DNA of 64,000 nt from Donghicola mangrovi (GTDB lineage: Bacteria; Pseudomonadota; Alphaproteobacteria; Rhodobacterales; Rhodobacteraceae). The stretch spans positions 1 through 64,000 of the forward strand of contig NZ_JABCJE010000009.1 of NCBI RefSeq assembly GCF_013377535.1. Direction: 5' to 3'. The notes under the pieces were generated by a model, which saw nothing but the letters and a program-made list of their open reading frames with translations, searched no databases and was not told the DNA's origin. Below, one piece after another: positions 3,788 to 39,916 of the stretch. Numbering within the stretch: position 1 is the first letter of the stretch; the number at the start of each line of letters is the position of its first letter. The translations under genes were made by a program, and so were the position numbers.

Positions 3788-3964
3788 CTGCCACTGCATC
3801 AGGGGCTGGATGCACTGCTTACAGATTGATCGCATAGCCGTCACTAGCATGGAGAACCAGCCAAAAAAGTAGTTCCTCCCAAATATCCCTAAACAAAAAC
3901 TTAAACCCGTCCGTTGGAGTCGTCAGCGACCAGTTTCTGATTTCTAGCAGAGGGGCAGAGGGAC
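3788..3964. other. Intergenic region between IS3 right end and flagellin gene
   Basis: No gene is seen here. The IS end and its right flank form a perfect 8-bp dyad (AGTGGCAG-gtca-CTGCCACT), so the flank resembles an inverted trace of the IS terminus. The last 100 bp are more AT-rich and must hold the flagellin promoter. TTAAACCC at 3901 followed by GTCAGCGA is only a weak match to a sigma-28 site. Confidence 0.4.
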
Positions 3965-5458
3965 ATGATCAATTCGGGATCGGCAGGGGCCGTGAACATT
4001 GCATTGCAGGCGATCTCTGCTGCGGATCAGGATCGCTCCAAATCTATGGAATCCCTTCAGACTGGTGAAAGGATTAACAAGGCTGGGGACGACGTTGCCG
4101 GTGTCTCGGGCGCAGCGAAGCTGCGCGGAGAGATCACTGCAGTTGCTCAAGGCATCAGGAATATCGGGGATTTTGGGGGATTCCTTGGGACGGCTGAGAC
4201 GATCCATACGGGCGCGATCGACATCCTTCAGTCCATGCGCGTGTTGGCGCTGCAATCTGCGAACGGTGTGAACTCGGGGAACGAACGCTTTTCCATTAAC
4301 GATCAGGCGCAGAATTTGTTGACCCAGTACCGCCAAGAGACCACCGGCGGTAACCTTGCTGCGCGGTTTCTGGTGGATGGGTCATTCTCGGACAAGCAAC
4401 TGACTTTGGGCGCGGGAGACGACAAGTCTCTGAACATCAGCATCCGCTCCATTCAGCTGCCGGATATCGGCCGGTTCAGCAATGGCACCGAAGCCTCGAT
4501 GAGCTTTACCACCGGCGCGGGCGTGGCCACGGGGCCGATCCAGAGCGGGGCGGTATTTCGGGTAAACAGCCTTGGCAAAACCGCCGAAGCGACGCTGGAG
4601 CAGGGCATGTCCGCGCGGCAACTGGCGGACAAGCTGCGCTCGAATGGCGGCGAGAGTTTGGCCGCGGCGGGGGTAGAGCTGATCGCGACCACGCAGGTGA
4701 AGCTGACCTCGCTGGCGGCGGGCAATATGGAGTTCAAGCTGAACGGTGTCTCCGTGGGGGGCATCGTCGGGGGCGATGGGGATCTGACAAACCTGAGCAG
4801 CCAGCTCAATGCCCAGTCCAACCGGACGGGTGTGACGGCCAGCCTTGATTCCTCTCGGACCAGTCTGACCCTGACGGATGCGCGGGGAAACAATATCAGC
4901 CTCTCGGACTTCCAGAGCTCCGATGGTGCGCGGCTGGAATTAACCGCGCTAGAGGATGGCGCGGACGCAGGGGCGACCAGCGGCATCCACACGGGCGTTC
5001 TGGAAAGTGGTGGGAACCTCGGGGCCACGATCACGGGGCGGCTGTCCCTGCTGGGGCACGAGAATATCAGCATCATGCAGACCGCCAATACCGGCGCGGG
5101 GCAGGGCTTTGTCGAGGGTGATCTGAAGAACAGCACCTTTGAAAGCCTCGGCTCCGTGGACCTGAGCACCGCAGAGGGCGCGATGAAGGCGGTTTCCATT
5201 CTGGATCACTCGATCGCGCGGGTCGAGACGGGCCGCGGACGGTTGGGTGCGACGCAGAATACCTTGGATTCGTTAACGCGGGGGCTGGGGCGGCTTCAGA
5301 CCAATCTGGAGAGCAGCCACGCGTATATCATGGGGGCGGATATGGCCAAGGAGGTCAGCCACTATGCGCAAAGCAGGATCATGCTGAACGCCGCGCAGGC
5401 GATGCTGGGGCAGGGGATGAAGGTACAGTCCCAGTTCCTGAACCTTCTACAGGGATAG
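3965..5458 (+). CDS. Flagellin-family protein (orphan)
   Basis: This 497-residue protein has the D0/D1 flagellin helices at both ends. Residues 1-130 contain LQTGERINKAGDDVAG and the ALQSANGVNSGNERFSINDQ heptad region. About 85 C-terminal residues contain GRGRLGATQNTLDSL and end in LNLLQG. The centre is a long variable Ser/Thr/Gly-rich domain that would face outward on a filament. There is no signal peptide, as expected for type III flagellar export. A purine-rich ribosome site (GAGGGGCAGAGGG) precedes the ATG. No other flagellar gene is in the window. It could be a minor or alternative filament protein rather than the main flagellin. Confidence 0.8.
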   Translation: MINSGSAGAVNIALQAISAADQDRSKSMESLQTGERINKAGDDVAGVSGAAKLRGEITAVAQGIRNIGDFGGFLGTAETIHTGAIDILQSMRVLALQSANGVNSGNERFSINDQAQNLLTQYRQETTGGNLAARFLVDGSFSDKQLTLGAGDDKSLNISIRSIQLPDIGRFSNGTEASMSFTTGAGVATGPIQSGAVFRVNSLGKTAEATLEQGMSARQLADKLRSNGGESLAAAGVELIATTQVKLTSLAAGNMEFKLNGVSVGGIVGGDGDLTNLSSQLNAQSNRTGVTASLDSSRTSLTLTDARGNNISLSDFQSSDGARLELTALEDGADAGATSGIHTGVLESGGNLGATITGRLSLLGHENISIMQTANTGAGQGFVEGDLKNSTFESLGSVDLSTAEGAMKAVSILDHSIARVETGRGRLGATQNTLDSLTRGLGRLQTNLESSHAYIMGADMAKEVSHYAQSRIMLNAAQAMLGQGMKVQSQFLNLLQG

Positions 5459-35185: not shown

Positions 35186-37186
<2,001 letters not shown>

Positions 37187-37210
37187 GGTCGGGCACCAAA
37201 AAACGAATAC

Positions 37211-37240
37211 GCGGGGATCGGGAAACCGGTCCCCGTTTTT
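37211..37240 (+). terminator. Rho-independent terminator of rpoD
   Basis: Stem CGGGGATCGG-gaaa-CCGGTCCCCG with one wobble pair is followed by TTTTTCTTG, 25 bp after the stop. Confidence 0.9.
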
Positions 37241-37368
37241 CTTGTGTATAACCCTGTATAACTCGGGCTTTGATGCTGCACCTGCTCAGACGGGGTCCCC
37301 TGCCGCCGTTCCTTAGGGGGCGGGGGGAAACCCCCTCGCGATTGTGCAACTCATAACAGGGAACACAC

Positions 37369-37536
37369 ATGAACGTTTCGTCCACAAGTCTTGTGACCGC
37401 CGCTTACGCGGGGGCCTCCACAAGCCAAGGGGCGCAAGAAGCGCTAGAGCAGAAGACAGCGCCCTCTTCGACCGACTCCGTCCTGTTGTCGCCGAAGGCC
37501 AAGGAGCAACTGGCAGCCCAGAAGGCCGCCGGTTAA
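37369..37536 (+). CDS. Small protein family member 1 (55 residues), unknown
   Basis: This 55-residue protein begins MNVSSTSLVTAAYAG and ends with the conserved block TDSVLLSPKAKEQLAAQK. The middle is low-complexity (Ala, Gln, Ser, Thr). It has no signal peptide or Cys. I do not recognise the family, but two more genes nearby share both ends of the sequence, which shows it is a real gene. The ribosome site (AGGGAA) is modest. A GGGGG-aaa-CCCCC hairpin lies about 35 bp upstream and a terminator follows, so it is likely monocistronic. Confidence 0.7.
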   Translation: MNVSSTSLVTAAYAGASTSQGAQEALEQKTAPSSTDSVLLSPKAKEQLAAQKAAG

Positions 37537-37557
37537 CGTCACAATGCGCCACCAAAG

Positions 37558-37582
37558 AAGGGCACCCCATGGGGTGCCCTTT
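37558..37582 (+). terminator. Terminator between small genes 1 and 2
   Basis: Stem AAGGGCACC-ccatggg-GGTGCCCTT, in effect an eight-pair GC stem with a CATG loop, ends in TTTGCCGTT, 22 bp after gene 1. Confidence 0.75.
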
Positions 37583-37685
37583 GCCGTTCCAGCGCACAAA
37601 TTCCTTATCTTTTTCCGAAACGCTCCGTTGGGCTCGGGGAGGGGCCTTGCGCCCCCGACCCCCGCAACCCGAACAAGGAGCCGCA

Positions 37686-37856
37686 ATGAACGTCTCGTCT
37701 ACCGGCGGCGCGATGGCCGCCCAGATGGCCGCCGCCAGCAGCCAGCCCGCCCCCGCCCAAGAGGCCCCCGCCGCCAAGGCCCCGCCCGCCACCGACACGG
37801 TGTCCCTGTCACCGCAGGCACAGGCCAAATTGGCCGCCCACAAATCCTGCGGCTGA
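37686..37856 (+). CDS. Small protein family member 2 (56 residues), unknown
   Basis: The protein begins MNVSSTGGAMAAQMAA and ends with the shared block TDTVSLSPQAQAKLAAHKSCG. It agrees with member 1 at the first six residues and over most of the C-terminal 18, while the Ala/Pro-rich centre differs. AAGGAG is well placed before the ATG. The D-x-V-x-LSP-x-A pattern loosely resembles the start of FlgM-type anti-sigma domains, but the proteins are too short to include the sigma-binding part. The function is unknown. Confidence 0.72.
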   Translation: MNVSSTGGAMAAQMAAASSQPAPAQEAPAAKAPPATDTVSLSPQAQAKLAAHKSCG

Positions 37857-37905
37857 CCCCCAAGGCGGGTTAACGGGCCCCTCGGGCGCCCCTTCTGAGC
37901 CAATC

Positions 37906-37975
37906 ATCAGGCCTGATCTAAATCGGGCACCCCCCGTGCCGTATTCCTGATGGGGCGGGGGGCCGATCAGGCCTG
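37906..37975. repeat. Repeated palindrome upstream of small gene 3
   Basis: ATCAGGCCTGAT (37906-37917) is a perfect 12-bp palindrome, and its first ten bases recur at 37966-37975, 40 bp before the start codon. The spacing of 60 bp would place both on nearly the same face of the helix, so this may be a paired regulator site. Confidence 0.4.
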
Positions 37976-38014
37976 TCCGCGCCTCTGCCATCTCAAAATC
38001 AGGGAGGAGTTCGG

Positions 38015-38188
38015 ATGGAAGTCTCAGCCTCGGGGGGCCTTGCGGCCCTTCAGCAATCTGCTGGAAAGAAGCCTGACCAACCGATCGAGCCCGCGATGAA
38101 AACGCCAGCCGAGCGGACGGCGGACATGATCACACTGTCCCCCGCCGCCAAGGCCAAGCTGGTCGCGGACGCCAAGAGCGGCATCTGA
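38015..38188 (+). CDS. Small protein family member 3 (57 residues), unknown
   Basis: The protein begins MEVSASGGLAALQQSAG and ends ADMITLSPAAKAKLVADAKSGI. It keeps the M-x-V-S start and the LSP-x-A-x-x-x-L-x-A block of members 1 and 2 but is the most diverged. GGAGGAG lies 4-10 bp before the ATG, the strongest ribosome site of the three. The last 30 coding bases plus the stop recur 582 bp downstream behind the lipoprotein gene, as if part of a fourth copy or of this gene had been duplicated. Confidence 0.72.
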   Translation: MEVSASGGLAALQQSAGKKPDQPIEPAMKTPAERTADMITLSPAAKAKLVADAKSGI

Positions 38189-38192
38189 TCCC
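38156..38192 (+). repeat. 37-bp direct repeat, copy 1 (end of small gene 3)
   Basis: It encodes the tail KLVADAKSGI and stop of small gene 3. It matches 38738-38774 at 35 of 37 bases. Confidence 0.9.
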
Positions 38193-38322
38193 GCAGCCAC
38201 GGGACCCCGTGGATCGTAAGGCTGATCCCTGATCCGGGGTATCGGGTCGGGTAACTCACCGTTGACATCTTGTAATCTGAAATCGCAAATACGAGCGCAA
38301 TTTCAGTGTGTTGGAGAGTGTT

Positions 38323-38739
38323 ATGGTAAAGAATTTGGTTCTGGTCTCCGCATTGGGCCTGATGGGGTGTGCCCAAACGGAGAAACCCGAAGCGGCTGTT
38401 CCGGTCGACATTATGGCGGTTCGCGCATCGGCCGCAGCCAATGGGGCTTCAGCCATTGCGTGGTTGAACCAACGTGGCAAAGGGGTGATCCTGCAAACCG
38501 CCAGCGACGATGTCCGGTGGAACGCTTTCGGCACGGTCGCGGGCTCGACATTGCACGAGAACGTCCAGATCAAAAGCTATGAGGGTCTCAAGCTGTGCAC
38601 CACGCGTGCAAACAAATGGACTGGTGCGTGTTTCCAGGTGCTGCCGACTGGAAATGAATCGTATCCCTACAAGATCGTCGGGGAATACGGAAACGGTGCG
38701 AAGATCCGCGAAAAGGTACGGTTCAGTACCATCGACTAA
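38323..38739 (+). CDS. Small lipoprotein, unknown function, repeat-flanked
   Basis: This 138-residue precursor has a lipoprotein signal (MVKNLVLVSALGLMGC, lipobox LMGC). The mature part has one pair of Cys (LCTTRANKWTGACFQVL) that could form a disulfide and a beta-rich pattern. GGAG lies just upstream of the start. Base composition is visibly less GC-rich than the neighbours, and the gene lies exactly between the two copies of a 37-bp repeat, with its TAA stop overlapping the second copy. It looks like an acquired cargo gene. No family is recognised. Confidence 0.75.
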   Translation: MVKNLVLVSALGLMGCAQTEKPEAAVPVDIMAVRASAAANGASAIAWLNQRGKGVILQTASDDVRWNAFGTVAGSTLHENVQIKSYEGLKLCTTRANKWTGACFQVLPTGNESYPYKIVGEYGNGAKIREKVRFSTID

Positions 38740-38774
38740 GCTTGTCGCGGACGCCAAGAGCGGCGTCTGATCCC
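38738..38774 (+). repeat. 37-bp direct repeat, copy 2 (orphan gene tail)
   Basis: It is a near copy of 38156-38192 and still reads KLVADAKSGV-stop, but with no start of such a gene upstream. It is a remnant of a small-family gene end. Confidence 0.9.
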
Positions 38775-38920
38775 CTTTGCCAACGTCAGTACGCAAGCCA
38801 TACGCGAACCATACGGAAGCTGGCATAGGGATTTTCAGTGAAATCATGGGCTTGGGGCGTGACCGGCGCCGCGGGCCGCGGTAACGTCTGGCATCGGCAT
38901 TTTTCGTTCGGGGGCAGGCT

Positions 38921-39331
38921 ATGCACACCACGTTTACCATCTCGACCCGCGGGCAGGGGATCTATGAATTCACGCGGGACGTGGCCGATTGGGTGCGGGG
39001 CGACGGGCTGCTGACGCTGTTCATCCGCCACACCTCGGCCAGTCTCCTGATCCAGGAAAACGCGGACCCCGAAGTGAAAGTGGACCTGCTGAATTACTTT
39101 GCTCGGCTGGTGCCCCCGTCAACCGATCCGTCCATGTCCTATCTGACTCACACCTACGAGGGGCCCGATGATATGCCTGCCCATATCAAGGCTGCTATCC
39201 TTCCGATTTCATTGACGATTCCGGTAATTGGCGGGCGTCTTGCCCTGGGCACATGGCAGGGCATCTACCTGTTCGAGCACCGCGATCGCCCCCACCGCCG
39301 AGAGGTCGTGGCCAAGCTGATCCAAGGTTAA
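38921..39331 (+). CDS. YjbQ/UPF0047 family protein
   Basis: This 136-residue protein matches the whole UPF0047 (YjbQ) family: TLFIRHTSASLLIQENADPEV near residue 33, the HTYEGPDDMPAHIKAAI block, and GGRLALGTWQGIYLFEHR at the end, with conserved His and Glu. E. coli YjbQ has a weak thiamine-phosphate synthase activity, so the true role is open. ATG 38921 starts at the family start. It stands alone before nrdR. Confidence 0.93.
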   Translation: MHTTFTISTRGQGIYEFTRDVADWVRGDGLLTLFIRHTSASLLIQENADPEVKVDLLNYFARLVPPSTDPSMSYLTHTYEGPDDMPAHIKAAILPISLTIPVIGGRLALGTWQGIYLFEHRDRPHRREVVAKLIQG

Positions 39332-39356
39332 TTTCACTATCTAGGGGCATGAAGAA

Positions 39357-39379
39357 ACCTCTACCCAAATTGTAGAGGT
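39357..39379. promoter_or_regulatory. Inverted repeat upstream of nrdR
   Basis: ACCTCTAC-ccaaatt-GTAGAGGT is a perfect 8-bp dyad 26 bp after yjbQ and 73 bp before nrdR. No T tract follows, so an operator is as likely as a terminator. It does not match the NrdR box I know. Confidence 0.45.
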
Positions 39380-39451
39380 GGTCCTATAGTGCCTGTGGAT
39401 AACTGGGGCGGCGCCCCCAATTGCACCGGTCTCGAACAAAGGAAATTGCCC

Positions 39452-39916
39452 ATGCGCTGCCCGTTTTGTGGAAGTGTCGACACACAGGTCAAGGACTCCC
39501 GTCCCGCCGAGGATCACGTCGCGATCCGTCGTCGCCGCTTCTGCCCGTCGTGCAGCGGGCGGTTTACCACTTATGAACGCGTGCAACTGCGCGATCTGGT
39601 GGTGGTAAAAACCTCGGGCCGCCGCGAAGACTTTGACCGGGACAAGCTGGAACGCTCGATCCGCATCGCAGCCCAGAAGCGCCCGGTAGAGCCCGAACGT
39701 CTGGATCAGATGATTTCCGGCATCGTACGCAGGCTCGAAAGCCTTGGCGAAACCGACATCCCGTCCAAGATGATCGGCGAGATCGTGATGGAGGCTCTGG
39801 CCCGCATCGACACCGTCGCCTACGTGCGTTTTGCGAGCGTTTACAAGAACTTCCAAGCGGCTGACGACTTCGATAAATTCGTCAGCGAGCTGCGACCAGT
39901 TCAGCCCACCGAGTGA
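39452..39916 (+). CDS. nrdR: Transcriptional repressor NrdR
   Basis: This 154-residue regulator of ribonucleotide reductase genes has an N-terminal zinc ribbon with Cys3, Cys6, Cys31 and Cys34, then the ATP-cone domain ([34 protein letters not shown]). ATG 39452 has AAAGGAA upstream. The longer reading from 39389 adds residues foreign to the family. The stop overlaps the ribD GTG (GTGA), so the two genes are translationally coupled, as in many bacteria. Confidence 0.96.

What the first reader, a model, noticed from the sequence alone, without database searches (positions are those of the whole stretch)
37369..38188. Three tandem genes for an unrecognised family of 55-57 residue proteins after rpoD
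Members 1, 2 and 3 share an M-[NE]-V-S-[SA] start and a C-terminal block [TA]D-x-[VI]-x-LSP-x-A-x-x-x-L-[AV]A, while their centres diverge freely. That pattern of conserved ends is what selection on a real protein leaves. Each has its own ribosome site, and at least the first is closed by its own terminator. I know no named family for them. The conserved LSP-x-A block recalls the beginning of FlgM-like or other flagellar-export regions, so a role as a secreted or regulatory micro-protein is possible. That is a guess.
Basis: partly seen in the sequence, partly recalled or inferred. Interest (0 to 1): 0.72.

Follow-up and report, generated by a model that had tools for sequence, protein, structure and literature searches.

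The report
Mini FlgM-like proteins of the flagellum
Three tiny genes behind rpoD in a bacterium of the genus Donghicola are real and look like shortened copies of the flagellar regulator FlgM without its sigma-factor-binding half, probably switched on by the flagellar sigma factor and perhaps exported through the flagellum.

Summary
Three ORFs of 55, 56 and 57 codons share the stated ends; the 4 genus genomes searched hold 2-3 copies each, under purifying selection. None of 10 copies tested reaches a Pfam or NCBIfam cut-off. (1) A whole-genome search with the C-terminal block finds only the three members and FlgM (weak, E 0.26); full-length queries did not list FlgM. (2) The profile aligns with FlgMs from Met1 through the DxVxLS block (hhalign 24.7; maximum of 200 shuffles 16.0), but the proteins stop where FlgM's sigma28-binding half begins. 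(3) Both copies outside the rpoD locus, one in another genus, have exact FliA-type boxes upstream; rpoD-linked copies have weaker ones (combined p 5e-5 to 7e-4). (4) FlgM is rare in the family (28 of 394) yet present in all genomes with a clear copy. Best reading: sigma28-dependent, disordered FlgM-N-half mini-proteins, perhaps late flagellar export substrates competing with FlgM. Export and function are inferred. The rpoD neighbourhood is probably incidental.

The parts
37369..37536 (+). member 1, 55 aa, alpha type
37686..37856 (+). member 2, 56 aa, alpha type; ends KSCG, its orthologues in G001 and G002 end KSCGC
   Evidence: weak FlgM (TIGR03824) hit E 0.033, 15.0 bits, cut-off 40.75
38015..38188 (+). 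member 3, 57 aa, beta type (KTPAER..DMITLSP)
37285..37312 (+). sigma28-like site before member 1: CTCAGA-N14-GCCGTTCC (good -10, poor -35)
   Evidence: p 0.027-0.088 by matrix and control set
37604..37631 (+). sigma28-like site before member 2: CTTATC-N14-TCCGTTGG (good -10, poor -35)
   Evidence: p 0.032-0.073
37918..37945 (+). sigma28-like site before member 3: CTAAAT-N14-GCCGTATT; invariant columns cluster here in an alignment of 4 beta-type upstreams
   Evidence: p 0.012-0.047
37558..37581 (+). perfect 24-nt palindrome, terminator-like hairpin after member 1
38738..38774 (+). 37-nt repeat (95%) of the 3' end of member 3, behind the small lipoprotein-like gene; probably a fragment of a further copy (inference)

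Best explanation
The three genes make small, mostly disordered proteins built like the first ~60 residues of FlgM (N-terminal half plus the DxVxLS block and a short helix) that stop before the sigma28-binding half. Shown by computation: coding genes conserved in the genus and in one other genus. Supported: FlgM-N-like; FliA (sigma28)-type upstream sites, so probably switched on late, with flagellin. Inferred: they leave the cell through the flagellar type III export gate as FlgM does and, being made only once sigma28 is free, compete there with FlgM, keeping more FlgM inside and damping late-gene expression. My rough odds: real genes 0.97, sigma28 control 0.8, FlgM relationship 0.65 (lowered from 0.7 on re-reading, whose full-length queries do not list the FlgM of the same genome), export 0.5, feedback on FlgM 0.2.
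For: Coding: dN/dS 0.07-0.43 in 9 computable of 12 pairs, third positions most variable in 12 of 12. FlgM: the C-terminal block finds 4 places at E<=10 in the own genome, the three members and FlgM; FlgM is the top NCBIfam hit of 3 of 10 copies tested, all three of the member-2 group (E 0.033-0.098), and in Pfam one beta copy of 10 hits positions 1-18 of PF04316 (E 0.19); profile A5 has the FlgM of G106 as its best match there (E 0.038); hhalign to 25 FlgMs scores 24.7 over 51 columns against 200 column shuffles with mean 8.5 and maximum 16.0, and 7.0 reversed. Promoters: TAAAC-N15-nCCGTT before fliC and a flagellin paralogue in 4 of 4 genus genomes, TAAAA-N14-G[CT]CGTT before flgM in 4 of 4; the G003:C8 and G099 copies have TAAAC-N14-[CT]CCGTT, exact boxes at the flgM spacing, 48 and 71 nt before the ATG, in genomes with 12 and 9 matches to the pattern in all, about 1e-4 by chance each (my arithmetic, 100 nt upstream); four beta upstreams share TAAA[AT]CGG[AG]C...G[CT]CGTA; combined p over 6 gene groups 5e-5 to 7e-4. 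Host: FlgM over cut-off in 4 of 4 genus genomes and G099, FliA over cut-off in G000. FlgM in 28 of 394 family genomes, including 3 of 3 with a clear copy. Structure: no secondary structure for residues 1-42, helix 43-55 (mean pLDDT 58.6).
Against: All single-sequence FlgM matches are below cut-offs; 7 of 10 copies have no FlgM hit in NCBIfam and 9 of 10 none in Pfam. Full-length queries on the own genome list other weak places (E 0.07-1.4) but not FlgM, and A5 lists FlgM in only 1 of 28 genomes at E<=1. hhalign probability is 42%; the likeness rests mainly on one short block in an A/P/S-rich chain. Members 1 and 2 have poor -35 boxes; beta copies have A where flagellin and flgM have T, and share CGG in the spacer, so another sigma factor is possible; L050:4499 has no convincing site (p 0.13-0.18). 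The gene groups are partly paralogous, and I chose the allowed spacers (13-16) after seeing some of the sites, so the combined p is optimistic. The pattern is not enriched genome-wide (2-6 per strand, reversed-pattern control 6-17). 25 of the 28 FlgM-bearing genomes show no clear copy (G001). No data on expression, export or phenotype.
Confidence: 0.5

Rival explanations
1. They stay inside and act on sigma28: the FlgM-N-like segment binds FliA weakly, shielding it from full-length FlgM or assisting FlgM.
For: FlgM-like N half with the DxVxLS block and a predicted C-terminal helix; FlgM wraps around FliA in the Aquifex complex (PMC4598750, passages).
Against: The C-terminal half, which becomes structured on sigma28 binding (PMC4284756, passages), is missing.
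Confidence: 0.2
2. Sigma28-dependent small proteins unrelated by descent to FlgM: another secreted or surface micro-protein whose disordered, A/S/P-rich chain and LSPxA helix start resemble FlgM by convergence. Cys-bearing ends (KSCGC, KGCSHG; GCSSC near the N-terminus in G003:C8) could serve disulfides or attachment.
For: Weak or absent single-sequence scores and absence of FlgM from full-length searches of the own genome; Cys motifs not present in the four genus FlgMs.
Against: Collinear profile match from Met1 beyond 200 of 200 shuffles; FlgM the only other genome match of the block.
Confidence: 0.18
3. Real small genes not under FliA: the upstream elements belong to another sigma factor, with a role unrelated to flagella.
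For: Poor -35 boxes at members 1 and 2; TAAAwCGGrC...GTCGTA of the beta copies differs from fliC and flgM sites.
Against: Exact FliA-type boxes before both copies outside the rpoD locus; clear copies seen only in FlgM-bearing genomes.
Confidence: 0.12
4. Not proteins: chance ORFs or RNA genes.
For: Small size; GC-rich DNA with many mechanical ORFs.
Against: Conservation in 4 genomes and one further genus, dN/dS below 1 in the 9 computable pairs, conserved ends.
Confidence: 0.02

Closest known systems
FlgM, anti-sigma28 factor (PF04316, TIGR03824)
   Same: A/S/P-rich N half, D[ST]VSLS block at a like distance from Met1, FliA-type upstream site, presence beside FliA in G000
   Different: Ends at the block; lacks the PP[FI]DxExVxRIK part that follows in FlgM; below every cut-off; up to three copies, outside the flagellar cluster of C1
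Sigma28-dependent late flagellar genes such as fliC
   Same: FliA-like upstream elements
   Different: No flagellar domain recognised; weaker -35 boxes at members 1 and 2
YjfB-type putative motility proteins (recalled, from no call)
   Same: Small, motility-associated by name
   Different: None of the 10 copies tested matches such a Pfam model

Membership tests
FlgM (PF04316 / TIGR03824) | Score over curated cut-off | tested here: not met
   best of 10 copies: 15.0 of 40.75 bits (TIGR03824) and 12.4 of 25 bits (PF04316)
FlgM (PF04316 / TIGR03824) | C-terminal sigma28-binding half | tested here: not met
   the proteins end about 15 residues after the start of the DxVxLS block
FlgM (PF04316 / TIGR03824) | N-terminal half with the DxVxLS block | tested here: met
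   hhalign 24.7, reached by 0 of 200 shuffles, though probability only 42%
FlgM (PF04316 / TIGR03824) | Inhibition of sigma28 | not testable with these tools
   needs biochemistry
FliA (sigma28) regulon | FliA promoter upstream | tested here: inconclusive
   exact boxes before 2 of 11 copies (G003:C8, G099); weaker in the nine at the rpoD locus, combined p 5e-5 to 7e-4; none convincing for L050:4499
FliA (sigma28) regulon | Host encodes FliA and FlgM | tested here: met
   FlgM over cut-off in 4 of 4 genus genomes and G099; FliA sought only in G000, over cut-off
Flagellar type III export substrate | Export through the flagellum | not testable with these tools
   only predicted disorder and FlgM likeness

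The most novel reading that the evidence does not exclude
A flagellar regulator split in evolution: FlgM-derived N-half 'decoys', made only when sigma28 is free, that occupy the export gate and slow FlgM's exit, giving a built-in negative feedback on late flagellar genes.
Probability: 0.2. Interest if true: 0.72.

Novelty: new variant of a known kind. Interest (0 to 1): 0.52.

Why it matters
FlgM export is the textbook checkpoint of flagellar assembly. Multi-copy mini-proteins that keep a FlgM-like N half and drop the sigma-binding half, behind FliA-type sites, would be a new layer on that checkpoint and a natural test of what the FlgM N half does alone. They also show how such genes escape annotation: no curated model reports them.

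Tried and rejected
Considered and rejected or weakened: a functional link to rpoD (the G003:C8 and G099 copies lie beside other genes). Sigma70-type promoters (0 found in 36500-39500). Chance ORFs. Weak family-wide hits: 27 of 149 genomes at E<=0.1 and 31 of 394 at E<=0.05, counts that include G000, G001 and G099. I looked at 11 loci (ten, L006) and 17 (one of them G099 again); G099 alone looked like a copy and L105 (G106) was FlgM itself; the remaining weak hits were not inspected. In one search at most 16 candidates per genome were scored, so distant copies may be missed; one search repeated the search with all candidates scored in 28 genomes (27 of the 28 FlgM-bearing genomes, G001 left out, plus G003). 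Plasmid collection with the G002 protein: no match. Solved structures: no match to profile A5 at E<=10; Donghicola FlgM hits 9wsf_B (E 2.2e-6). Literature: 15 of 29 papers listed; 15 of 45; 10 of 14; 12 of 21; 9 of 9; 10 of 17; 14 of 14; no listed title or abstract start tells of such proteins. Passages were read in four papers: PMC3595227 (nothing on the FlgM N half in them), PMC7277832, PMC4284756, PMC4598750; all others were seen as listing only. Most subscription journals are not held.

The names rpoD, YjbQ, NrdR, pirin, ABC transporter, lipoprotein and short-chain dehydrogenase are recalled from the look of the sequences (rpoD also from the finding); no family search was run for them except one on the lipoprotein-like protein, which gave no Pfam family. 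The genus name rests on G001 and G002 contigs having the same lengths as records (Donghicola eburneus DSM 29127 and a MAG titled only 'Alphaproteobacteria bacterium') and on the search tool placing G000 in the same genus as G001.

Full report
What is there. An alignment confirms shared ends and a freer middle. Pfam gives nothing for the three; NCBIfam gives only a weak FlgM match for member 2 (E 0.033, 15.0 bits against a cut-off of 40.75).

Relatives. All 4 genomes of the genus group searched hold copies: 3 in the window's genome, 2 in G001, 2 in G002 and 3 in G003 (two at the rpoD locus, one at C8), 10 in all. At the rpoD locus the order rpoD, small genes, YjbQ-like, NrdR-like holds in all four (gene names recalled). 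Two types exist: alpha (members 1 and 2) and beta (member 3). Outside the genus one clear homologue was found, in G099: first seen at E 0.0048, then E 3e-18 once its own sequence was part of the profile. It lies next to an ABC-transporter-like gene; the G003:C8 copy lies between a pirin-like gene and a substrate-binding-protein-like gene (names recalled). So rpoD is not a constant neighbour.

Coding. For the member-2 orthologues dN/dS is 0.07-0.15, against member 1 0.20-0.24, and in the beta group 0.20-0.43; in 3 of 12 pairs dS could not be computed, and dS exceeds 1 in the rest, so the ratios are rough. Third codon positions differ most in 12 of 12 pairs.

FlgM. The genome has FlgM (over cut-off; protein) and FliA (over cut-off). 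The small proteins end about 15 residues after the start of the block, where FlgM goes on with PPFDVEAVKRIK and the rest of its C half. A profile of the C-terminal block alone, run on the whole genome, gave 4 matches at E<=10: the three members and FlgM (E 0.264). That E-value is not significant by itself; what speaks is that no other place did better. Against this, full-length queries on the same genome list other weak places and not FlgM, and A5 lists FlgM in only 1 of 28 genomes searched at E<=1 (G106). Of 10 copies scanned, 3 have FlgM as top NCBIfam hit and 1 as its Pfam hit, all below cut-off; the others have no FlgM hit. Profile A5 (10 sequences) against 25 FlgMs (5 of 30 reads dropped; 4 of the 25 from the genus) aligns 51 columns from Met1: score 24.7, E 2.6e-4 for the one comparison, probability 42%, against 200 column shuffles with mean 8.5, sd 1.8, maximum 16.0, and 7.0 for the reversed profile. 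AlphaFold on 7 copies leaves residues 1-42 without secondary structure and gives a helix 43-55; mean pLDDT 58.6, best in residues 41-50 (83). From papers, passages only: half of FlgM stays disordered while its C half folds on sigma28 (PMC4284756); in Rhodobacter sphaeroides Fla1, FlgM is exported when the hook is complete and FliA then drives fliC and fliD (PMC7277832).

Upstream sites. Before fliC and before a flagellin paralogue lies TAAAC-N15-nCCGTT in 4 of 4 genus genomes; before flgM TAAAA-N14-G[CT]CGTT in 4 of 4. With a matrix from these, the best site in the 250 bases before each of the 11 copies ends 48-119 nt from the ATG; with the flagellin-only matrix one copy (L048 beta) prefers another site, 141 nt away. 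Exact boxes (TAAAC-N14-nCCGTT, the flgM spacing) occur before 2 of 11 copies, the two not at the rpoD locus. The other nine are weaker, single p 0.02-0.31 over the two matrices, and L050:4499 is unconvincing. Fisher's combination over six gene groups gives 9.4e-5 and 5.3e-5 with group medians, 3.2e-4 and 7e-4 with the worst member per group. Limits: the controls are 342 upstreams of mechanical ORFs of 120 aa or more, which include true flagellar promoters and spurious ORFs; the groups are partly paralogous; the allowed spacers were set after some sites had been seen. The exact pattern is not enriched in the five genomes as a whole, so it is position, not number, that counts. In four beta upstreams invariant columns cluster at TAAA.CGG.C and G.CGTA.

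Co-occurrence. FlgM passes its cut-off in 28 of 394 family genomes. Clear small-protein copies (E below 1e-10) occur in 3 of the same 394 (G000, G001, G099), all three among the 28; G002 and G003, outside that sample, have FlgM too. These are two genera, so the chance is about 0.005 by my arithmetic. The other 25 FlgM-bearing genomes show no clear copy, so the proteins are an accessory of FlgM systems at most.

Reading. The proteins look like FlgM cut off before its inhibitory half and put under late flagellar control. Export and competition with FlgM follow from likeness, not from a test. They should not be filed as FlgM: two defining features were tested and not met.

Novelty. Seven literature searches listed no such protein in titles or abstract starts; listings were capped and cover only the open library.

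Noticed in passing
window 3965-5458, site 3890-3915: A flagellin-family paralogue (PF00669 over cut-off) with an exact FliA-type site lies about 33 kb upstream in the window, apart from the flagellar genes on C1; orthologues with the same kind of site exist in the 3 other genus genomes.
   Followed up: partly
window 38323-38739: Small lipoprotein-like gene without Pfam match follows the cluster; a 57% identical copy sits at the same place in G003 (L050), and none was found in the fetched loci L048 (G001) and L049 (G002).
   Followed up: partly
window 38738-38774: 37-nt repeat (95%) of the end of member 3 directly behind the lipoprotein-like gene, perhaps a trace of a partial duplication.
   Followed up: partly
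L048:3884-4141, L049:3438-3695, L050:3843-4115: An 85-90 aa membrane-like ORF overlaps the rpoD stop codon in the three relatives and is not among the ORFs listed for the window, which has a terminator-like hairpin at 37211-37236 there.
   Followed up: no
L048:4825-5607 (-), L049:4535-5293 (-): A short-chain-dehydrogenase-like gene (name recalled) on the minus strand follows the cluster in G001 and G002, roughly where the lipoprotein-like gene stands in the window and G003.
   Followed up: no
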